Assembly: GCF_001518015.1 (NCBI RefSeq)
Contig: NZ_LPUY01000075.1
Location: forward strand, 1-64,000
Reading direction: 5' to 3'
DNA: 64,000 nucleotides
Source of the DNA: Tritonibacter horizontis
Lineage (GTDB): Bacteria > Pseudomonadota > Alphaproteobacteria > Rhodobacterales > Rhodobacteraceae
The position numbers were made by a program, and so were the translations under genes. Below are positions 39,238 to 49,096 of this stretch, in pieces (within the stretch, counting starts at the first letter, position 1; each line of letters begins with the position of its first letter). The notes beneath the pieces were generated by a model. That model worked only from the letters and a program-made list of their open reading frames with translations, was not told the origin of the DNA and did not search any database.

Positions 39238-39951
39238 ATGAGCAGTATCAACGCCGGGCTGGAAGAAAGCCTGCGCAAGAAAATCATTGACGAGCCCCAG
39301 ATGGTGCTGGACGACCCGAACGTGATGCGTGCGTTGGTTGCCGGTAACGAACGGTCGATGGGCAGCAATATCGTCGACATGCGCGGCCTCGCGATGGAAC
39401 GGCTGGAAACCCGGCTTGACCGGCTTGAGGATACCCATCGGTCGGTCATTGCCGCCGCCTATGAAAATCTGGCCGGCACCAACCAGATCCACCGCGCTGT
39501 CCTGCGCCTGCTCGACCCCGAAAGCTTTGCCGGGTTCATGGAGGTGCTGCGCGGTGATTTCTGCGACATCCTGCGGATTGACGCGATGGCGCTCATCCTC
39601 GAAACCACCCAGGAAGAAGCCGGAGCCGCGGTGGAGCGGGTGGGGGATGTGCTGAAATTTACCGAGGCCGGGTTCATCGACGGCTACCTGTCACAGGGGC
39701 GTTCCTTTGGCGGGGAGCGCAGCGTGTTGCTGCGCCAGATCGACACCGCGCCCGCACGCATTTACGGTGAAAAGTCGGCGAGCTTGCGGTCGGAGGCCTG
39801 TCTGAAACTGGATCTTGGCAGCGGCCGTCTGCCCGGTCTGCTGGTCCTCGGCGCCGAGGACCCGGGGCAGTTCACGCCGCAACATGGTACTGATCTGCTC
39901 AGTTTCTTCGCCGGCGTTTTTGAGCGCAGCATGCGCCGCTGGCTGTCGTGA
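39238..39951 (+). CDS. DUF484 family protein
   Basis: A 237-residue soluble protein. A helical N-terminus (ESLRKKIIDEPQMVLDDPNV) precedes a coiled stretch (MERLETRLDRLEDTHRSVI) and a GAF-like C-terminal domain (about 85-235). DUF484 genes commonly lie beside xerC, as in E. coli yigA-xerC. The function is unclear. GTG 39229 is an alternative start three codons earlier. The stop overlaps the GTG of xerC (GTGA). Confidence 0.85.
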   Translation: MSSINAGLEESLRKKIIDEPQMVLDDPNVMRALVAGNERSMGSNIVDMRGLAMERLETRLDRLEDTHRSVIAAAYENLAGTNQIHRAVLRLLDPESFAGFMEVLRGDFCDILRIDAMALILETTQEEAGAAVERVGDVLKFTEAGFIDGYLSQGRSFGGERSVLLRQIDTAPARIYGEKSASLRSEACLKLDLGSGRLPGLLVLGAEDPGQFTPQHGTDLLSFFAGVFERSMRRWLS

Positions 39952-40883
39952 CCACACAGGGAACAGCCCTGATTTCGCCTGCCGCGCGGGATGCCCTGCA
40001 GACCTGGCTTGCCACCCTCAGCGCCCTGGACGGGGCTGCGGAAAATACGCTCAGCGCCTATCGCGGCGACGTCACCGAATTCCTCATGTTCATGACGTTG
40101 CATTCTGGCGAACCGCAGGGGCTGGGTGCGCTGGCCCGTATTGCGACCTCTGACATGCGCGCCTGGATGGCATCCTGTCGCGCGAACGGCACTGGCGCGC
40201 GCTCGCTGGCGCGCAAGCTGTCGGCGGTGAAGAAGTTCTATGGCTGGCTCGCCCCTCGGGAAGGGTTTGAGCCGACCGCCGTGCTGTCGATCCGCGCGCC
40301 CAAATTCCAAAAGAAGCTCCCGCGTCCGCTCGACACCCAGGCGGCCCGTGCCATGATCGACACGGTCGAACTGCAATCCCTGCAGGACTGGGTTGCCGCC
40401 CGCGACGGCGCCGTGGTGACCCTGCTCTATGGCTGCGGGCTGCGCATTTCCGAGGCGCTGGGGCTCAAGGGACGGGATGCGCCGCTGCCGCCAACGCTGC
40501 GCATTCGCGGCAAGGGGGACAAGGATCGCGTGGTGCCGGTGATTGCGGCCGCCCGCACGGCCGTGGACCGCTATATGCGTCTGTGTCCGCACCCGATGGA
40601 GCAGGATGCGCCGCTGTTTCGCGGCGTGCGCGGCGGGCCGCTGAACGCTCGCACGGTGCAAGGCGTGGTGGCGGCTGCGCGCCGTCAGCTCGGTCTGCCG
40701 GCCTCGGCCACGCCCCACGCCATGCGCCATAGCTTTGCCACCCATCTGCTGGAGGCCGGTGGCGACCTGCGGGCGATCCAGGAGCTTCTGGGACATGCCT
40801 CGCTGTCGACCACCCAAGCCTATACCGCCGTGAACAGCGCGCATCTGCTTGACGTGTATAACCGCGCCCATCCCAAAGCCTGA
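39948..40883 (+). CDS. xerC: Tyrosine recombinase XerC
   Basis: A 311-residue site-specific recombinase for chromosome dimer resolution at dif. An N-terminal core-binding SAM-like domain (about 12-110) precedes the catalytic domain. The catalytic set is Arg in GCGLRISEAL, Lys in GKGDKDR, His-x-x-Arg in HAMRHSFATHLLEAGGD, His in ELLGHASLSTTQ and Tyr in TQAYTAVNSAHL. It is adjacent to DUF484 as in other proteobacteria, so it is the housekeeping enzyme, not a phage integrase. Confidence 0.94.
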   Translation: MTTQGTALISPAARDALQTWLATLSALDGAAENTLSAYRGDVTEFLMFMTLHSGEPQGLGALARIATSDMRAWMASCRANGTGARSLARKLSAVKKFYGWLAPREGFEPTAVLSIRAPKFQKKLPRPLDTQAARAMIDTVELQSLQDWVAARDGAVVTLLYGCGLRISEALGLKGRDAPLPPTLRIRGKGDKDRVVPVIAAARTAVDRYMRLCPHPMEQDAPLFRGVRGGPLNARTVQGVVAAARRQLGLPASATPHAMRHSFATHLLEAGGDLRAIQELLGHASLSTTQAYTAVNSAHLLDVYNRAHPKA

Positions 40884-40997: not shown

Positions 40998-42656
40998 ATG
41001 ATGCAGCAAGTTGACACCGCTCTGCTCCGTTTCGCCAATCGGGGCACCCTGTTGCCGCAGCTGGTGCTGGTGGTCTTTACCTTGCTGATGATTCTGCCCG
41101 GTTTCTTTGTCCTGCCGCCGGTGGACCGGGACGAAAGCCGGTTTTCACAGGCTTCGCGGCAAATGGTGGAAAGCGGCGATCTGATCGACATCCGACTGGG
41201 CGAGGACGCCCGCTACAAAAAGCCGGTTGGTCTGTATTGGCTGCAAACCGCCGCCCAGACCCTGATCGGTGCGGAGGCGCATCTGAACGACATCTGGGCC
41301 TATCGGCTTCCGTCCGCCTTGGCGGCGGTGGTGTCGGTGCTTCTGACCTATCTTGTCGCCCTGCAGCTGATGGGGGCGCAAGCCGCGTTTCTGGCCGCCG
41401 CGCTTTTGGCCAGCAGCTTTGTCTTTGGAGCCGAAGCGCGGCTGGCCAAAACCGACGCGACATTGCTGGCCACCATCCTGATCTGTCAATGGAGCCTCGC
41501 CCGGCTCTGGTCCGACGGGCGTTTGTCCCGGGGCGCCGCCCTGCTGTTCTGGGGCGCGCTTGCCGCGTCGATCCTGGTCAAAGGGCCGCTGGGTCCGATG
41601 GTGATTGGCAGCACGATTGCCCTTCTGGCGCTGCATCGGCGTGGCCTGTTGTGGCTGGCGCCGCTGCGGTTTCGACAGGGCGGCATCCTGCTTCTGGTGC
41701 TGGTGCTGCCCTGGTTCATCGCCATCAGCCTGCGTTCGGGTGGTGCGTTCTGGACCGCCTCCCTGGGCGCGGATCTGCTGGCCAAGGTCGGCGAGGGGCA
41801 GGAAAGCCATGGCGCGCCGCCCGGCAGCTACCTGCTGGCCGTGTGGCTGACGTTCTGGCCGGCCGCGATCCTGCTGCCCTTTGCGGGGCTTTATGCCCTG
41901 CGCAACTGGAAATCACCTGAGGTGGTCTTTTGCCTCGCCTGGATCATCCCGACCTGGCTGATCTTCGAACTGGCCGCCACCAAACTGCTTCACTATGTGC
42001 TGCCGACCTATCCGGCCCTGGCGCTACTGGCCGCCGCCGGCTGGCTGTCTCGCCCCGCTCAGCTTCGGCCGGGCCTCGGGTTTCGCATATTCCTTGCCGT
42101 GATCCTGGCGCTGGCGCTGGTCTTTCCTGTCGCCTCGGCCTGGCTCAGCCAGTCGCTGGGCGGTGGCCTGTCGCTCTGGTGGGCTGGCGGCCTTTGCCTC
42201 TGCCTGATGGGCATTGCCCTTGGCTGGTGGAGCTTCGGGCGAGGTGCCCGCCTGCTGCCTGCCTGCGCCTGCGGTGTCCTGAGCCTCGGACTGTCAGTGT
42301 CGCTCTACGCCCACCTCGCCCGGACACCGCAATTGTGGCCATCGGTGGCCATGGCGCGTCTCGTGTCCGAGACCGAGCTGTGCACAAGACCGCTGCTGAT
42401 CTCGATCGGCTATGAAGAGGCGTCGCTGATGCTGCTCAACGCCCAGCCGGTGGTTTTCGGACTGGCGCCGGACGATGCGGTCCGCCGCCTGCAGGGGCAT
42501 GACTGTGGGATTGCCTTTGTGACGGCACCGCAGCTGGCGGCGTTTCAGCGCGCCGCCGCCGACGCCGGCCTGTCACTGCAGCGAGGTGATCCGATCAGCG
42601 GGTTTTCGATAGGTGGCGCGGAGCAGGTCGAACTCTCGGTCTTTCTGCGAAACTAG
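40998..42656 (+). CDS. GT39-family glycosyltransferase (ArnT-like), plus-strand copy
   Basis: A 552-residue integral membrane glycosyltransferase of the polyprenyl-phosphate-dependent (PMT/ArnT) type. The first periplasmic loop has the catalytic-type acidic pair in DRDESRFSQASRQM, followed by the Lys-Lys-Pro motif in ARYKKPVGLYWLQT. About 11 membrane helices follow, then a soluble C-terminal segment of about 130 residues (from about 420). ArnT-like enzymes move a sugar from a polyprenyl carrier to lipid A or core. The acceptor here is inferred from the neighbouring cluster. Its stop shares CTAG with the stop of the convergent PAP2 gene. Confidence 0.85.
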   Translation: MMQQVDTALLRFANRGTLLPQLVLVVFTLLMILPGFFVLPPVDRDESRFSQASRQMVESGDLIDIRLGEDARYKKPVGLYWLQTAAQTLIGAEAHLNDIWAYRLPSALAAVVSVLLTYLVALQLMGAQAAFLAAALLASSFVFGAEARLAKTDATLLATILICQWSLARLWSDGRLSRGAALLFWGALAASILVKGPLGPMVIGSTIALLALHRRGLLWLAPLRFRQGGILLLVLVLPWFIAISLRSGGAFWTASLGADLLAKVGEGQESHGAPPGSYLLAVWLTFWPAAILLPFAGLYALRNWKSPEVVFCLAWIIPTWLIFELAATKLLHYVLPTYPALALLAAAGWLSRPAQLRPGLGFRIFLAVILALALVFPVASAWLSQSLGGGLSLWWAGGLCLCLMGIALGWWSFGRGARLLPACACGVLSLGLSVSLYAHLARTPQLWPSVAMARLVSETELCTRPLLISIGYEEASLMLLNAQPVVFGLAPDDAVRRLQGHDCGIAFVTAPQLAAFQRAAADAGLSLQRGDPISGFSIGGAEQVELSVFLRN

Positions 42657-43456
42657 CGGGCGGTGTGGCTTTGCTCCGCCAGTTTTGTCACCTCTTGCGG
42701 CGTGTCAGACAGGCTCTGGACGGCCAACCCCGCCGCAAGCGCAACCGCCACTGCGACCCCAAGGCCAAAGGTTTGCGCCGCCCCCGACCGGTCGCCGCTC
42801 CGGGTGGGCAACCGCGACACCACCGCCCGGCGGACGGTTGAGACCGCAGCCGCCGCCCCTAGCCAAAGACGGCGGAAAGCCCGGTCAAAGGCGGCAAGGG
42901 AGGCGATTTGCAGCATCCAGCCCAAGGCCGCGCCCGCGACGACCTGCCAGATCGTATGCGCCCCGGCCTCTACCCGGCTGGTGCCGACAAACCCGGCAGA
43001 GATGACCACCGCCGCCTGGGCGGTCTTGTTCGCGGCAAGGCAGCCCTGAACCAGCGCTGTCGCGCCAAACGCCGAGGCCGTCATATGACCCGACGGAAAC
43101 CCCTTGTCACCGCCATTCGGGCGCTGGTTCAACGGCGCCTTCCCCAGGCCGGCTTTGGACCCATGGATGGCAAATTCCATCAGGATGAAACGGCCGAAGT
43201 ACTGGACGCCCCGCCCTTCGGCAACGGCGCACCCCAATCCCGCCAGCGGCAGGGCGATCTGGATATTGTCGCCGATCCGCTCGACCGAACGATTGGCGAA
43301 TGACATGCACACAAGCAGGATCGCGAGGATGAGGAACGCCCCAAACTGCCGCACCACCCAAAGCGCCAGCCGCCGCAGCCGATCCGGGCTGCGGCGGGCC
43401 GGTCTTCGGGGACGTGTCAGGACAGGCTCACCGTGATCCGGGCGTTGGTCGAACAT
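42653..43456 (-). CDS. PAP2-family lipid phosphatase A
   Basis: A 267-residue membrane phosphatase. ATG 43456 follows AAGGAG, so it is preferred over the longer frame to 43486. Motif C2 GFPSGHMTAS is intact. Motif C1 (GKAPLNQRPNG) has five rather than six residues between Lys and Arg-Pro. Motif C3 SRVEAGAHTIWQ ends in Gln where Asp is usual. About five membrane helices are visible. PAP2 enzymes dephosphorylate lipid A, phosphatidylglycerol phosphate or polyprenyl pyrophosphate. The substrate is inferred to be lipid A or its carrier from context. The start overlaps the previous gene by 29 bases. Confidence 0.8.
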   Translation of the reverse strand: MFDQRPDHGEPVLTRPRRPARRSPDRLRRLALWVVRQFGAFLILAILLVCMSFANRSVERIGDNIQIALPLAGLGCAVAEGRGVQYFGRFILMEFAIHGSKAGLGKAPLNQRPNGGDKGFPSGHMTASAFGATALVQGCLAANKTAQAAVVISAGFVGTSRVEAGAHTIWQVVAGAALGWMLQIASLAAFDRAFRRLWLGAAAAVSTVRRAVVSRLPTRSGDRSGAAQTFGLGVAVAVALAAGLAVQSLSDTPQEVTKLAEQSHTAR

Positions 43457-44342
43457 CTGCCGGTCTCCTTTTTGTGGACGGCGCAAGGGCCAGGCGTCGC
43501 TCTTTCGGTCGGGCGAGCAGGCTGCGTCCCAGGGTCAGGGCAAACAATCTGCGCCCGCCGCGCAGCAGCCGCGCGAGCTCTCGCAAGGCCGGGGTCAGGC
43601 ACAGGCGGATATCGCCCCAGAACAGCCCCGCATCGTTGCGCAGCGCCTGCCCCGTGACCCGCGGCAAGGCCGAGGCAAGCCGAAACAGGCGGCCCAGCCA
43701 GACCGCAAGGGTCATCATCATCAGGGCAGCCCAGACAACATCCGACAGGAAATGGCGGCCCTTCATCACCCGGAGGCTCGCACCGATCACCACAAAGCTG
43801 ATCAGGACCACCACCAATGGGCGGCGGCGGTGCGGGGGCACCACATTCCACAACACCAGCCCCGCGATGATGGCGGACACCGTCGCCGCGGCTGCCTCGC
43901 CCGACACGAAGGAACAGTTGCGGGCGCATTCATCCGCAAACTGCAACGCCGGGGTAAACTGCGCCTCGCCTCCGAAACTGTCGATCTGCGCCGGGCGTGC
44001 CCGGCCCCAATGGGCCTTGAACCCCAAATTCACCAGCAGCACCGGCCCCAGCACGATCAGGCTCGCACAGAACGCCCAGAACCGCCCCGGGATCTCCAGC
44101 TTCTGGTTGCTATACCAGGCCTGAAGCCCAAACAGGATGACGACCAGCGCCACCAGATGGAACAGATTCCAGATGACTTCGCGCAGCAGCGCGAGGCTTT
44201 TGACGTGGTCCAGATAGAAACCGCCCAGCGCCGGGACGTAGAACTGTTGCGCGACCCAGATATCCACGTTGGGAAACATCGCAAAACCTAGCGCGACAAG
44301 CAGCCATGCCCGCGCCAGTGAGGCCGTTGCAAGGGCGTTCAT
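43428..44342 (-). CDS. PAP2-family lipid phosphatase B with variant C2 motif
   Basis: A 304-residue membrane phosphatase. Motif C1 KAHWGRARP is intact. In C2 the usual Pro-Ser-Gly-His is replaced by Val-Ser-Gly-Glu (NCSFVSGEAAAA), and C3 SLRVMKGRHFLSDV keeps the nucleophile His and the Asp. Six membrane helices are predicted. A basic, Arg-rich C-terminal tail of about 70 residues is unusual. The start overlaps the GT39 stop by four bases. LpxE-, LpxF- or PgpB-like activity are alternatives. Confidence 0.8.
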   Translation of the reverse strand: MNALATASLARAWLLVALGFAMFPNVDIWVAQQFYVPALGGFYLDHVKSLALLREVIWNLFHLVALVVILFGLQAWYSNQKLEIPGRFWAFCASLIVLGPVLLVNLGFKAHWGRARPAQIDSFGGEAQFTPALQFADECARNCSFVSGEAAAATVSAIIAGLVLWNVVPPHRRRPLVVVLISFVVIGASLRVMKGRHFLSDVVWAALMMMTLAVWLGRLFRLASALPRVTGQALRNDAGLFWGDIRLCLTPALRELARLLRGGRRLFALTLGRSLLARPKERRLALAPSTKRRPADVRPTPGSR

Positions 44343-45796
44343 CGCGACAGCTCCCAACAGGTCGCGGGCACGCGAAAGCCATGTAATCCCCTGTCGGCAT
44401 AGGCCCCCGGCCCCTGCCCCACCGGACCAAGCGCATCGGCTTGCCCGCAAGGCGCAGCCCTGCCGACATAAAGGACGTCGCCCTCAAACTTGGCTGGCAA
44501 AGGGAACCGCTCGGCATAGTAATGCGGGCTCTTGGCCGGATGGGGCACCGCATACAACGCCAGCCCCGCATCACGCCCATAGTAGAACAGATCCGCAAGG
44601 ACCGGTCGGCTGTCCGCCACGATGGCAGCAAGCTGCGCGTCCCGGGCCAGATCGACCACCTCCTGCACCGCCCTGTCGCGGCCGGTGTAGCGTTTCAGAA
44701 CCAGCCGGTCGCCAATGCTCCATTGCGTAACCTGTGTTGCGGCGCACGCCACCGCGAGGCTCAGGCACAGGTTGATGCCAAGCCCGACCCAAAGCAGTCG
44801 ACGCGCCCGGTGCAACAAAAATGGCACCCCCAGCAGCAAGGCTGCCGGATAGGTCATCGCCGCCCAGTTGGCATAGGCCTTTGACAGGAGCGCCTGCGCA
44901 CAGACCAGCGCCAGGATCGGCAACGACATGCACAACAGCCACCTTGCACGCGGATCGTCGTGCCGCGCCGCATGCCAGCCCGCCCAGATGAACCCGATGA
45001 ACAACACCGGCCCCATCACGACCCCTTGGGACAGCAGGAACTCCGCCAATGCGGCAAAATGCAGGCGCGGCGCTGCCTCCTGCCGGATCCAATCGACATT
45101 GTCGGCCGTGTGGCTGACGGTGGCAAAATCGTGGGCCATGTTCCAAACCACATTCGGCGCGATCACGGCGGCAAAAACCACAGCCGTCAGCGCCAGATGG
45201 CGCAGCGGCAACCGCGATGCCGGAACCGCCAGCGCAGCGATGCCAGCCCCAAGGAGGAAATAAGCCGCCGCATATTTCGCCAGCATGCCAAGCCCCAGGC
45301 ACAAGCCCATCACGGCCGCATCCCGCAGATTTGGTGCCTCCAGCTGCCGCAGCCACAGCAACAGCGCCGCGCACCAGAACGGCAACAGGATCGTGTCCGT
45401 CGAGATCAACGCCGAGCCGACAGCGATCAGCGGCAGGCTGACATAGGCGAGCCCGACCGCAAGGGCGGCCTCGGCGTCGGTCAGGCGTCGGGCCGCAGCC
45501 ATCAGCGCCAGCGCCGCTGCGCCATGGCACAGGGGTGCCGCCGCCCGGATCCAGACCACGCTGTCGCTCCCTGACATGTCGGTCACCAGCCGGATGACCC
45601 AGCCGATCAGCGGGGGCTTTGAATAATAGCCGAAATCGAGGTTCTGCCCCCAGAGCCAATATTGCGACTCGTCAAAGAACAGGTCAGCGTCACTCGCCCA
45701 GAGCAGGGTCAGGCGGAGCGCGGTGACAGCGGCGATCAGCCCCACCCCGACGGTCGACAGGTCAAACGCTTTGGGTTGTGGTACGCTTTTCTGCAT
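44339..45796 (-). CDS. GT39-family glycosyltransferase, operon copy
   Basis: A 485-residue integral membrane protein of the PMT/ArnT type. The first loop carries the acidic pair in DLFFDESQYWLWGQNLDFGY and the Lys-Pro-Pro motif in YYSKPPLIGWVIRL. About 11 helices follow, with a short soluble C-terminus (from about 400). It is only distantly similar to the plus-strand GT39 protein downstream, so the two likely act on different sites or sugars. It overlaps the LAB-N gene by 35 bases upstream and the PAP2 gene by four bases downstream. Confidence 0.85.
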   Translation of the reverse strand: MQKSVPQPKAFDLSTVGVGLIAAVTALRLTLLWASDADLFFDESQYWLWGQNLDFGYYSKPPLIGWVIRLVTDMSGSDSVVWIRAAAPLCHGAAALALMAAARRLTDAEAALAVGLAYVSLPLIAVGSALISTDTILLPFWCAALLLWLRQLEAPNLRDAAVMGLCLGLGMLAKYAAAYFLLGAGIAALAVPASRLPLRHLALTAVVFAAVIAPNVVWNMAHDFATVSHTADNVDWIRQEAAPRLHFAALAEFLLSQGVVMGPVLFIGFIWAGWHAARHDDPRARWLLCMSLPILALVCAQALLSKAYANWAAMTYPAALLLGVPFLLHRARRLLWVGLGINLCLSLAVACAATQVTQWSIGDRLVLKRYTGRDRAVQEVVDLARDAQLAAIVADSRPVLADLFYYGRDAGLALYAVPHPAKSPHYYAERFPLPAKFEGDVLYVGRAAPCGQADALGPVGQGPGAYADRGLHGFRVPATCWELSR

Positions 45797-46079
45797 AGAT
45801 CAGCCACAGGTTGCGGGCGTAGATCACAACGCCCAGAGATTGGCCCAAGATGAAAACCGGGTCTTGTCGGTGCAGGGCATAGGCAAACAACGTCAGACCG
45901 CCGAAAATGGAAAACCACCAGAAGACTTCGGGGATGACCGACCGGCCCTCTTTTTCCGATGCCCACCACTGCAGGACAAATCGCATCGAGAACATCATCT
46001 GCGCGCCAAGGCCGACGATCACCCAAGTCAGTTCGAGGGTGCTCTCCACCTTGAAGAATTCAAGAATTCCTTCGATCAT
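45762..46079 (-). CDS. Lipid-A-disaccharide synthase N-terminal domain (LAB-N) membrane protein
   Basis: A 105-residue protein with three membrane helices: about 17-35, 52-70 and 75-97. It matches the LAB-N family (WVIVGLGAQMMFSMRFVLQW and PEVFWWFSIFGGLTLFAYAL). Free-standing LAB-N proteins lie beside polyprenyl-phosphate glycosyltransferases in many proteobacteria. They may be accessory subunits or flippase-like partners. It overlaps the GT2 gene by four bases and the GT39 gene by 35 bases. Confidence 0.85.
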   Translation of the reverse strand: MIEGILEFFKVESTLELTWVIVGLGAQMMFSMRFVLQWWASEKEGRSVIPEVFWWFSIFGGLTLFAYALHRQDPVFILGQSLGVVIYARNLWLIYAEKRTTTQSV

Positions 46080-46948
46080 GCTGCGGCTTCCTTGGTTTTT
46101 GTTAGCGCCCTCTGCGCCTGCGGCTGCCCGGGCGCGTCAGCACTGGTGACGGCGCCGATCAGATCTTGCGCAGACCGCTCCTGCGGGCGGGCCGTTTTGG
46201 ACCGTCGGACCAGCCAGGCGACACCCAGCAAATCCGAGATGCCGACCAGCGCCCGTTGCAGGTTGGTGTATTTCGACGCGCCGGCCTCGCGCGCGCGGTG
46301 GGCGACATCAACATGCGCAACCTCCCAGCCCGCTCTGGCAAAGAGCGCCGGCAAGTACCGGTGCATGTGGTTGAAATACGGCAGTTCCAGAAACGCCGCG
46401 CGGCGAAACGCCTTGAGACCGCATCCGGTGTCACGGGTATTGTCGTTCAGCACAGCGGCGCGCAGCGTGTTGGCGGCGCGAGAGGCAAGTTTCTTGGTCA
46501 GCCGGTCCTGACGGTGCTGTCGTTGCCCGGCGACCAGCCCCAAACGGTCTGGCGCGGCCGCTGCCAACAGCGGCGCGCAGAGGTTCGGCAACTCGGCCGG
46601 TGGGTTTTGCAGGTCGCCATCCAGCGTGCAGATCAGCCATCCCCGCGCGGCCAGCACGCCACTATGCACCGCAGCCGATTGCCCGGCGGCCTGCCCGTGC
46701 TGCACGAGGCGGAGCCAGGGCCGGGTCATCATGTGTTCGCCGATCAGGCGGGCAGTCCCGTCCCGAGATCCATCATCGACCAGAATGACTTCGCTTTCGG
46801 GAAGAAAAGCCCGTGCCTGCTCCAGCTCTGCCAGGAGCGGGGCCACATTCCCGGCCTCATTGTGCATCGGGCTGATGATGGTGACGATGGGCGTCTGGCC
46901 CGCCATCTGGCCTGTCGTCACGCCCTGTTGCGGATCCGTCCGCGTCAT
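46076..46948 (-). CDS. DPM1/ArnC-type family 2 glycosyltransferase
   Basis: A 290-residue GT2 enzyme making a polyprenyl-phosphate-sugar. Motifs: ISPMHNEAGN near 25-34, VILVDDGSRDGTARLI, the metal-binding region TLDGDLQNPPAELP, the QRQHRQDRLTKKLASR basic motif and DTGCGLKAFRR. A GASKYTNLQRALVGISDLL segment ends the domain. The C-terminal 40 residues are polar and carry no clear second membrane helix. GGGAG before ATG 46948 supports this start. It is the first gene of the five-gene overlapping operon. Sugar unknown. Confidence 0.88.
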   Translation of the reverse strand: MTRTDPQQGVTTGQMAGQTPIVTIISPMHNEAGNVAPLLAELEQARAFLPESEVILVDDGSRDGTARLIGEHMMTRPWLRLVQHGQAAGQSAAVHSGVLAARGWLICTLDGDLQNPPAELPNLCAPLLAAAAPDRLGLVAGQRQHRQDRLTKKLASRAANTLRAAVLNDNTRDTGCGLKAFRRAAFLELPYFNHMHRYLPALFARAGWEVAHVDVAHRAREAGASKYTNLQRALVGISDLLGVAWLVRRSKTARPQERSAQDLIGAVTSADAPGQPQAQRALTKTKEAAA

Positions 46949-47106: not shown

Positions 47107-48228
47107 CTAGGATGACGGGCGGCGCGGCATGCGGATGGGGCGCCCGGCCATGGCGAGAAACGCCCCGGCGACCAGGCAGCCCGCTACCGTCGGCAGATGG
47201 TAGATCCACCACAGGTCAGGCGTTTCAAGCACCAGCCCAGACGCACCGCCGCGCGCGGCTTCGACACCGATCAAGATCACGAAGGCCAGGCAGATCTGGG
47301 TCCAGAGCCCAAACCGCGAATGGGCCCCTGTCATCAATGCGGTAAAGCCGATCAACGCCACCGCGACGCAAATCCCGACCCAGGACAGGCGTTCGTGCAG
47401 TTCTTCGACCAGCTGCCCCTCCGAATAGCTGCCCTGCGCCACCAGCTCTGCGCGCCCGCGCAACAACACGCTGGTGGGCAGCGCGCGCAAGCTGTCATGA
47501 TCTGTCGCCTCCAGATCACCATAGCGCGAGATGTCTACGGTCAGATCATCGAACCAGGTGGCGGACAGCTCTTCGGCGGCGGCATTGTAGCGCGCCACCA
47601 TGCCCTCGACCATGACGACATAGATCGCGTCGTTTTCCTGCACCAGATAGGCCTGAGAGGCCGTATAGGTCTGCGGCCGTTCGGCGACGCGCCGGTCCGA
47701 GATATAGACATCCCGCAGGGTGCCGGTCGGGTCGATGGTTCCGAAATAGACCACGACCCCATCCATCGGGTGAAGGAAGGTTCCCTCCTTCAACAGCTTC
47801 GCCGCGAGATCCTGCTCCAGTTCCGCTTCGCGCTCTTCAAATGCCGCCAGAGAGGCCGGACGCAGAACGGTGGTCAGGGTCGCGACCATCACCGCCGCAA
47901 GCGCGGCAAACATGATCACCGGTCGGGCCAACCGCATCGGGCTGGCACCGGTGGCCTGCATGACCACCAGTTCGCTCTCGCGGCGCAAACGGTTGGTGAC
48001 ATAGACGACCGCCGCGAAAATCGCCATCGGCATCACTGTGCGCAGCAGGGTCGGAAAGGTCAGGGCGGTAAGTTCAAAAAACACCCAAGGCGAATGCCCG
48101 CCCCCCAGCAGCGTCGAGAACAGGCCGATAGAGCGCGAAATCCAGAAGACCCCGGCCAGGACCAGGGTGAAAAAGCTCCACATCACGATCAGTTGGCGCA
48201 GAACATATCCATCGTAACGTGCAAACAT
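47107..48228 (-). CDS. LptF/LptG-family (YjgP/YjgQ) permease
   Basis: A 373-residue integral membrane protein. Three N-terminal helices (about 15-38, 60-85, 100-122) are followed by a periplasmic beta-jellyroll domain (about 135-275: VVYFGTIDPTGTLRDVYISD) and three C-terminal helices (about 285-365). This is the architecture of the LPS-transport permeases. LptF and LptG are normally adjacent genes; here one stands alone beside the lipid cluster. It may be the true LptF or LptG, or a specialised paralogue. Met 48228 is preferred over the frame to 48330. Confidence 0.83.
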   Translation of the reverse strand: MFARYDGYVLRQLIVMWSFFTLVLAGVFWISRSIGLFSTLLGGGHSPWVFFELTALTFPTLLRTVMPMAIFAAVVYVTNRLRRESELVVMQATGASPMRLARPVIMFAALAAVMVATLTTVLRPASLAAFEEREAELEQDLAAKLLKEGTFLHPMDGVVVYFGTIDPTGTLRDVYISDRRVAERPQTYTASQAYLVQENDAIYVVMVEGMVARYNAAAEELSATWFDDLTVDISRYGDLEATDHDSLRALPTSVLLRGRAELVAQGSYSEGQLVEELHERLSWVGICVAVALIGFTALMTGAHSRFGLWTQICLAFVILIGVEAARGGASGLVLETPDLWWIYHLPTVAGCLVAGAFLAMAGRPIRMPRRPSS

Positions 48229-48377
48229 TGGTCTCTCGGGCCCTGTGGATTGGCATGCCTGACCGAAGGCCGGCACGGGGTTTCTTGCTCTGTCCCTGTC
48301 TACGAGACTTTTCCGGTGCACCGCCAGCAAAGTTATTCAGACCGACACGGCGTTGTGACGCTTGCGGGTTGCAGCTT

Positions 48378-48403: not shown

Positions 48404-49096
48404 ATGACAAAAGAACTTCGCGCCCTGTCCGTACACCTGTTAACTGCAACCGGTGCCGTTTTCGCCATGCTCGCCATGTTAGCCGCGGTAGAGGCGAAAT
48501 GGGATCTGATGTTCTTGTGGCTGGGGGTCGCCTTTGCGGTCGACGGCATCGATGGCCCGCTGGCCCGCCACTATGACGTGAAACGCAACGCGCCGCAGTT
48601 TGATGGTGTCTTGCTCGATCTGATCATCGATTATCTGACTTATGTCTTCATTCCCGCGTTTGCCCTGTTCACATCTGATCTGATGTCGGGCTGGACCGGA
48701 TGGGTCGCGATCATCGTGATCACCTTCACCAGTGCGATGTATTTTGCCGACACCCGGATGAAGACCAAGGACAATTCCTTTTCGGGCTTTCCGGGCTGCT
48801 GGAACATGCTTGTGTTGGTCATCTTTGCGCTCGAGCCCAATCACTGGATCAGCCTGGCCCTGGTGACGGTGCTGTCGGCCACCATGTTCCTGCCGCTGAA
48901 ATTCATCCATCCGGTGCGCACAGAACGCTGGCGGCCGCTGTCCCTGCCGATCGCCCTGCTCTGGACCGGTCTTGCAGGCTGGACCGCCTGGGTCGATTTT
49001 GCGCCTGGTCCCCTGGTGCATGGGTTGCTCCTGGCGACCTCGGTCTATCTGCTGTTTGTCGGGATTGCCCAGCAGGTGATCCCACAACGCCGCTGA
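48404..49096 (+). CDS. pcs: Phosphatidylcholine synthase (CDP-alcohol phosphatidyltransferase)
   Basis: A 230-residue integral membrane enzyme condensing CDP-diacylglycerol with choline. The CDP-alcohol motif lies at 48-74: DGIDGPLARHYDVK, then GVLLDLIIDYLTYV, with all Asp residues in place. About seven membrane helices. The family start RALSVHLLTATGA is at residues 6-18. Pcs is common in alphaproteobacteria and scarce elsewhere. AGAGAGGG abuts the start codon, leaving unusually short spacing. Confidence 0.93.
   Translation: MTKELRALSVHLLTATGAVFAMLAMLAAVEAKWDLMFLWLGVAFAVDGIDGPLARHYDVKRNAPQFDGVLLDLIIDYLTYVFIPAFALFTSDLMSGWTGWVAIIVITFTSAMYFADTRMKTKDNSFSGFPGCWNMLVLVIFALEPNHWISLALVTVLSATMFLPLKFIHPVRTERWRPLSLPIALLWTGLAGWTAWVDFAPGPLVHGLLLATSVYLLFVGIAQQVIPQRR

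What the first reader, a model, noticed from the sequence alone, without database searches (positions are those of the whole stretch)
42653..46948. Five-gene overlapping operon that may build a lipid A/core sugar-modification and dephosphorylation pathway
A DPM1/ArnC-type GT2, a LAB-N membrane protein, a GT39 transferase and two PAP2 phosphatases overlap end to end by 4, 35, 4 and 29 bases. A second GT39 gene converges on them. ArnC/ArnT and the rhizobial Rgt systems use such parts to make a polyprenyl-phosphate sugar and attach it to lipid A or core, and LpxE/LpxF-type PAP2 proteins remove lipid A phosphates. The gene coupling is seen in sequence; the shared pathway is inference. The sugar and attachment site are unknown.
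Basis: partly seen in the sequence, partly recalled or inferred. Interest (0 to 1): 0.72.

Follow-up and report, generated by a model that had tools for sequence, protein, structure and literature searches.

The report
Lipid A dephosphorylation and sugar-capping island
Six neighbouring genes look like a kit that strips the phosphates off the outer-membrane anchor lipid A and puts sugars in their place, and one of them, a tiny membrane protein shaped like a sugar transporter, may be the part that handles the lipid-linked sugar.

Summary
Five minus-strand genes (46948-42653) overlap by 4, 35, 4 and 29 bases, and a second GT39 gene (40998-42656) converges on them. The six form an island between xerC and lptF, found complete in 3 of 18 genus genomes; three others show that junction without it. 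The convergent GT39 falls in the clade of RgtF, the Mesorhizobium lipid A alpha-(1,1)-galacturonosyltransferase. The first PAP2 resembles the 4'-phosphatase LpxF and is coupled to the first GT39 in other families too. The second PAP2 is a divergent LpxE candidate. GT2 plus LAB_N would supply polyprenyl-phosphate sugar to both ends. Expected product: phosphate-free lipid A with (galact)uronic acid at C-1 and C-4', as reported for Caulobacter and Oligotropha. The least ordinary part is LAB_N: predicted SemiSWEET fold, beside a GT2 in 30 of the 31 genomes where it was found, and in a Paenibacillus plasmid next to UDP-glucose dehydrogenase, an epimerase and GT2, where no lipid A is expected. That suggests it moves or presents polyprenyl-phosphate sugars, comparable to eukaryotic MPDU1; but many RgtF-carrying genomes lack it. 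Nothing was tested biochemically; the sugar is inferred.

The parts
46076..46948 (-). GT2, RgtE/ArnC-type polyprenyl-phosphate sugar synthase without C-terminal membrane helices
   Evidence: Pfam PF00535; best solved relative ArnC, E 1.9e-23; no C-terminal helix by hydropathy, E. coli ArnC control shows two
45762..46079 (-). LAB_N, 105-aa membrane protein with predicted SemiSWEET fold
   Evidence: PF07578 109.7 bits; AlphaFold2 pLDDT 87.8; top Foldseek matches are SemiSWEETs; beside GT2 in 30 of 31 genomes that have it
44339..45796 (-). GT39a, GT-C glycosyltransferase, proposed lipid A 4' transferase
   Evidence: PF13231; predicted fold nearest ArnT 5ezm; own clade of 18 rows, 100/99; overlaps an LpxF-like PAP2 gene in other families
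43428..44342 (-). PAP2a, LpxF-like phosphatase, proposed lipid A 4'-phosphatase
   Evidence: best NCBIfam match LpxF 90.2 bits, cut-off 400, same in four relatives; KX6RP, SGE, RX5HX3D motifs
42653..43456 (-). PAP2b, divergent PAP2, proposed lipid A 1-phosphatase
   Evidence: PF01569 44.1 bits; only NCBIfam match at E 0.001 is LpxE, 22.8 bits, cut-off 177; PSGH and SRX5H present, K-x10-RP and HX3Q unusual
40998..42656 (+). GT39b, RgtF-clade (ArnT-like) glycosyltransferase, proposed lipid A C-1 transferase
   Evidence: NF009784 ArnT 73.6 bits, cut-off 567; 5ezm E 5.1e-14; one clade with Mesorhizobium RgtF orthologues, 100/99

Best explanation
A two-ended lipid A remodelling island. GT2 transfers a sugar, most likely galacturonic acid, from its UDP form to polyprenyl phosphate on the cytoplasmic side. 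LAB_N, a SemiSWEET-fold half-transporter, docks the helix-less GT2 at the membrane and/or lets the polyprenyl-phosphate sugar reach the periplasmic side. In the periplasm PAP2a (LpxF-like) removes the 4'-phosphate of lipid A and GT39a caps that position; PAP2b (LpxE-like) removes the 1-phosphate and GT39b (RgtF clade) caps C-1. Both transferases draw on one donor. The product would be phosphate-free lipid A with a sugar at each end. Shown: genes, order, families, conservation, predicted folds. Inferred, with my odds: donor synthesis by GT2 0.85; GT39b at C-1 0.75; PAP2a at 4' 0.65; GT39a at 4' 0.55; PAP2b at C-1 0.5; uronic acid as sugar 0.55; LAB_N as transporter or presenter of the donor 0.4.
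For: GT39b lies in one clade (28 rows, 100/99) with Mesorhizobium, Afipia, Phyllobacterium, Azospirillum and Acetobacteraceae proteins. In Mesorhizobium carmichaelinearum the order is GT2, LAB_N, GT39b of 549 aa, PAP2 of 271 aa; M. loti RgtF is given as 549 or 547 aa and LpxE as 271 aa, with rgtE upstream and, by locus-tag numbering, one gene between (my inference). 58 of the 80 loci kept hold both GT2 and LAB_N. PAP2a's best NCBIfam match is LpxF in 5 of 5 members tested. GT39a and PAP2a genes overlap in G074, G081 and Hoeflea too. Clear PAP2a homologues occur in two Afipia and a Bradyrhizobium, but three Mesorhizobium give only 22-26 bits; the paper's table likewise found no lpxF in M. loti. 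UDP-glucose dehydrogenase and an SDR epimerase lie with LAB_N in Cetobacterium, Paenibacillus and G024; the window genome has an SDR 60-63% identical to the Paracoccus LAB_N-linked ones.
Against: PAP2b is not an orthologue of the rhizobial-type LpxE, and no clear LpxE of that type was found in G000, G004 or G012; PAP2b's co-occurrence with GT39 is not significant (3 of 7, p 0.3). All LpxF and LpxE scores are far below curated cut-offs. No experimentally named RgtD sequence was reached, so GT39a rests on gene coupling. LAB_N is dispensable for the RgtF type: 24 of 25 genomes or records with GT39b but no local LAB_N lack it altogether. Gluconacetobacter (G110), Acetobacter (G111) and Azospirillum (G106; G107 21.5 bits) show no clear PAP2a, although the related Granulibacter has phosphate-free lipid A, so other 4'-phosphatases must exist. 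The passage on A. lipoferum contradicts itself on the C-1 sugar. The SDR epimerase also occurs in three genus members without the island, and its substrate is not known.
Confidence: 0.6

Rival explanations
1. Only one lipid A position is modified, by GT39b, and the GT39a-PAP2a pair acts on another acceptor (core sugar, another glycolipid, or a recycled carrier).
For: GT39a forms its own clade away from GT39b and ArnT; GT39a occurs without GT39b in 9 of its 19 genomes. Some LpxE-type PAP2 enzymes also act on undecaprenyl pyrophosphate (PMC6581854, start of abstract in the listing).
Against: PAP2a matches LpxF best, and GT39a and PAP2a genes overlap in several families.
Confidence: 0.25
2. An Arn-like system that adds L-Ara4N to lipid A phosphates.
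For: Among solved structures GT2 is nearest to ArnC and GT39b to ArnT.
Against: With E. coli ArnA as query, no listed match in six genus genomes spans both halves of the fused enzyme. None of the ten frames scanned with Pfam between 39229 and 49096 is ArnA, ArnB, ArnD, ArnE or ArnF. Two phosphatases in the operon would remove ArnT's acceptor phosphates (inference). ArnB and ArnD were not searched for genome-wide.
Confidence: 0.07
3. LAB_N is only a membrane anchor for the helix-less GT2 and moves nothing.
For: 100 of 101 LAB_N- or RgtF-linked GT2 frames show no C-terminal membrane helix, while E. coli ArnC shows two.
Against: The 12 GT2 frames without LAB_N nearby are helix-less as well, so an anchor is not always needed; a transporter fold with invariant Q27, R33, Q37, E42, R89 and N90 in 29 rows is more than an anchor requires.
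Confidence: 0.3

Closest known systems
Mesorhizobium loti rgtE-rgtF-lpxE cluster
   Same: Mesorhizobium loci fetched here have GT2, LAB_N, RgtF-clade GT39 and a PAP2 in a row; papers give rgtE, rgtF and lpxE clustered and alpha-(1,1)-GalA on lipid A
   Different: Here a second GT39 and an LpxF-like PAP2 are added, the 1-phosphatase candidate is a different PAP2 family, and the RgtF-clade gene is on the opposite strand
Rhizobium leguminosarum RgtD/LpxF/RgtE (4'-GalA)
   Same: Phosphatase plus transferase plus polyprenyl-phosphate GalA logic; RgtD is 473 aa, GT39a 485 aa
   Different: Not clustered in R. leguminosarum; no RgtD sequence was compared here
Enterobacterial arn operon
   Same: GT2 plus small membrane protein(s) plus ArnT-type transferase
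   Different: ArnE/ArnF instead of LAB_N, ArnA/B/D for the sugar, the phosphate as acceptor (recalled), no PAP2 phosphatase genes in the operon
Eukaryotic DPM1, MPDU1, PMT/ALG set
   Same: A GT2 makes the polyprenyl-phosphate sugar, a PQ-loop/SWEET-family protein is needed for its use, GT-C enzymes spend it (MPDU1 function called unknown in PMC3281891, passages)
   Different: MPDU1 has two SWEET repeats (recalled); no sequence comparison with MPDU1 was made

Membership tests
RgtF (lipid A alpha-(1,1)-GalA transferase) | Groups with Mesorhizobium RgtF orthologues | tested here: met
   One clade of 28 rows, 100/99; the reference rows were recognised by synteny and length, not by accession
[quoted passage not shown]
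   GT2 in 69 of 80 kept loci, LAB_N in 60 of 80; window, G004, G012
RgtF (lipid A alpha-(1,1)-GalA transferase) | Partner 1-phosphatase of rhizobial LpxE type | tested here: not met
   Best matches 29.5 (G000) and 31.0 bits (G004) are PAP2a itself; G012's 29.8 bits lie elsewhere (C43); clear members score 122-270 bits in G047, G064, G067, G074, G087
RgtF (lipid A alpha-(1,1)-GalA transferase) | Enzyme activity | not testable with these tools
   -
LpxF (lipid A 4'-phosphatase) | Scores over the NCBIfam cut-off | tested here: not met
   90.2 bits against 400, though it is the best match
LpxF (lipid A 4'-phosphatase) | PAP2 catalytic motifs | tested here: inconclusive
   KX6RP and RX5HX3D present; the H of PSGH is E or D in 19 of 22 proteins looked at
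LpxE (lipid A 1-phosphatase) | PAP2b scores over the NCBIfam cut-off and has canonical motifs | tested here: not met
   22.8 bits against 177; K-x10-RP, HX3Q
ArnC | Two C-terminal membrane helices | tested here: not met
   None in GT2, two in E. coli ArnC by the same hydropathy measure
ArnC | Scores over the NCBIfam cut-off | tested here: not met
   96.4 bits against 529
SemiSWEET / MtN3-like fold (LAB_N) | Three-helix SemiSWEET fold | tested here: met
SemiSWEET / MtN3-like fold (LAB_N) | Transport activity | not testable with these tools
   -
RgtD (lipid A 4'-GalA transferase) | Sequence relation of GT39a to RgtD | not tested
   No named RgtD sequence was reached

The most novel reading that the evidence does not exclude
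LAB_N proteins are a general bacterial carrier or presenter of polyprenyl-phosphate monosaccharides, a half-size SWEET-fold counterpart of eukaryotic MPDU1, working with a DPM1-like GT2 and PMT-like GT-C enzymes and not tied to lipid A at all; the window island is one use of this trio, in which one donor module serves two phosphatase-transferase modules at the two ends of lipid A.
Probability: 0.38. Interest if true: 0.78.

Novelty: new variant of a known kind. Interest (0 to 1): 0.55.

Why it matters
If right, the charge at both ends of lipid A in this lineage is set by one 6-kb island that species keep or lack as a unit (complete in 3 of 18 genus genomes), which gives a natural with/without comparison. 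More widely, how a polyprenyl-phosphate sugar comes to be used on the far side of the membrane is an open point for many systems, and human MPDU1, needed for all known dolichyl-phosphate-monosaccharide reactions in mammals, is called of unknown function in the 2012 paper whose passages I read (PMC3281891). A 105-residue bacterial protein of the same fold family, encoded beside the synthase and the user enzymes, would make that question testable with purified parts.

Tried and rejected
Arn pathway: disfavoured and gene content. Core glycosylation alone: not excluded, but less favoured than lipid A. PAP2b as orthologue of rhizobial LpxE: rejected; the profile comparison covers only the second half (70 columns). 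LAB_N as a strict requirement for RgtF: rejected (that set includes MAGs and one plasmid record). A substitute small membrane gene in LAB_N-less loci: none in 13 of 14 loci, one frame 800 bases away in L161; but the same hydropathy measure misses LAB_N's own helices, so this is weak. Naming the sugar from the epimerase: NCBIfam gives no decisive name. GT39a against solved structures by sequence: nothing under E 0.2; the fold search did better. Papers: no statement of LAB_N function found (swamped by unrelated words), nor by word search in four rgt papers; the key rgtF paper (PMC3608353) is not held, so this absence is weak. Co-occurrence counts use presence lists I copied, with a cut of about 100 bits for GT39, and ignore shared ancestry. 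Rows left out: L015 from A1 (stop in the matched stretch); L114 was not held, so searches covered 19 of 20. The 80 loci are the best 80 of at least 577, and one genome (G087, L077) appears in both locus sets, so counts over loci are not fully independent. No tRNA gene lies in the window.
Full report
What is there. The window carries GT2 46948-46076, LAB_N 46079-45762, GT39a 45796-44339, PAP2a 44342-43428 and PAP2b 43456-42653 on the minus strand and GT39b 40998-42656 on the plus strand. Domains are confirmed by Pfam.

An island with an empty site. The six genes lie between convergent xerC (39948-40883) and lptF (ending at 47107). LAB_N was sought in 101 genomes (the window's own and 100 relatives) and found in 31; in the genus 3 of 18 have it (G000, G004, G012), and these three carry all six genes in the same order. 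In G010 and G011, whose LptF is 86 and 85% identical to the window's (closer than G004 at 76 and G012 at 65%), and in G006, xerC and lptF are convergent neighbours with about 169, 143 and 31 bases between the tblastn matches. In G013 and G003 the LptF match had no xerC beside it, the contig of G015 is cut, and the other nine genus genomes were not looked at in this respect. The simplest reading is loss of the whole block in some lineages, since identities of the block genes broadly follow those of LptF; repeated gain at the same place is not excluded.

GT39b is of the RgtF clade. A maximum-likelihood tree of 59 proteins puts the 28 GT39b rows on one side of a branch (100/99), among them Mesorhizobium, Phyllobacterium, Afipia, Bradyrhizobium, Azospirillum and Acetobacteraceae, with E. 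coli ArnT next to them (ArnT has a long branch). The reference identity comes from context: in Mesorhizobium carmichaelinearum (L098) GT2, LAB_N, a 549-aa GT39b and a 271-aa PAP2 with PSGH follow each other, and the papers give M. loti rgtE (MAFF_RS01125, 244 aa), rgtF (RS01135, 547 or 549 aa) and lpxE (RS01140, 271 aa), rgtE upstream of rgtF (table and passages). The experimental basis for RgtF (Brown 2013) was seen only as cited there. Alpha-(1,1)-GalA on lipid A is listed for A. lipoferum, Mesorhizobium, Caulobacter and Aquifex, though the same passage then says that the A. lipoferum backbone lacks the reducing-end substituent; both-end GalA is reported for Oligotropha, terminal alpha-GlcA and mannose for Granulibacter. 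A. lipoferum 4B carries GT2-LAB_N-GT39b on plasmid p5; whether 4B is the strain whose lipid A was studied I did not see.

Two phosphatase-transferase modules. GT39a forms a separate clade of 18 rows (100/99) and its predicted structure (pLDDT 91.1) is nearest to ArnT (5ezm, E 4.9e-7, TM-score 0.64 by query). Its gene overlaps an LpxF-like PAP2a gene in G074 and G081 (other families) and in Hoeflea, as in the window. In the same G074 genome the GT39b gene overlaps a rhizobial-type LpxE gene at another place, and an LpxE-type PAP2 lies within the fetched flanks (8 kb or less) in 56 of the 80 GT39b loci kept (the profile was built from nine loci of that set). So the pairing 'one phosphatase, one transferase' is seen twice, with different families. 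PAP2a is LpxF-best in NCBIfam though below the cut-off. Of 19 named genomes searched with the PAP2a profile, clear matches (over 90 bits) were in two Afipia (128 and 130), two Bradyrhizobium (134; 94 in a piece cut by a contig end), Hoeflea (214), a Cohaesibacteraceae MAG (142) and Nitrospirillum (142); three Mesorhizobium gave 22-26 bits, and Phyllobacterium, Gluconacetobacter, Acetobacter and one of two Azospirillum nothing. In this group the His of PSGH is Glu or Asp in 19 of 22 proteins. PAP2b matches the LpxE model best, weakly (window 22.8, G004 27.2, a homologue outside the genus 29.8 bits), and has altered motifs; it is the least certain part. No clear rhizobial-type LpxE was found in G000, G004 or G012, so PAP2b is the candidate for the 1-phosphate by elimination.

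Beyond lipid A. LAB_N matches 18 plasmid records, of which I opened 8, besides A. lipoferum 4B. GT2, LAB_N and GT39 lie together in Paracoccus (two records), Thalassospira, Ilyobacter and Cetobacterium, and in Pelagovum with a protein called hypothetical that has no Pfam match but 49 bits to the GT39b profile. Two-component regulators are close by in five of the eight. Hymenobacter has LAB_N without GT2 beside it. In Paenibacillus cellulosilyticus, a Bacillota, the run is UDP-glucose dehydrogenase, SDR epimerase, GT2, LAB_N, with no GT39 found in the 10 kb held. Cetobacterium has GT2, LAB_N, SDR, UDP-glucose dehydrogenase, GT39, and the LAB_N locus of G024 holds both SDR and dehydrogenase. Together these suggest a UDP-uronate as the usual donor. 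The window genome holds an SDR 60-63% identical to the Paracoccus ones, but so do G010, G011 and G006, which lack the island (55-64%). Martelella sp. NC18 has GtrA in the LAB_N slot between GT2 and a GT39, which suggests that the two do the same job. Against a strict need, 24 of 25 genomes or records with GT39b but no local LAB_N lack it altogether.

Verdict.

Noticed in passing
window 47107-48330: lptF stands apart from lptG here; in 9 of 18 genus genomes a second LptF/G-like match lies right beside lptF, in G004 and G006 it lies elsewhere, in the rest none was listed.
   Followed up: partly
window 42653-43456: PAP2b belongs to a PAP2 family with K-x10-RP (7 of 7) and HX3Q (6 of 7, one cut off) that also occurs without the other island genes nearby (L154, L155, L156).
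   Followed up: partly
L082, L087, L106 and other Acetobacteraceae loci: GT2-RgtF pairs exist without any LAB_N found in the genome; what replaces it is unknown.
   Followed up: partly
L151:5705-9354: Martelella plasmid with PAP2, GT2, GtrA and GT39 in a row: GtrA in the LAB_N position.
   Followed up: no
L252:1862-5333: Paenibacillus plasmid run of UDP-glucose dehydrogenase, epimerase, GT2 and LAB_N in a Bacillota, where lipid A is not expected.
   Followed up: partly
window 48404-49096: A phosphatidylcholine synthase-like gene (248 bits, cut-off 350), divergent from lptF, in the same envelope-lipid neighbourhood.
   Followed up: no
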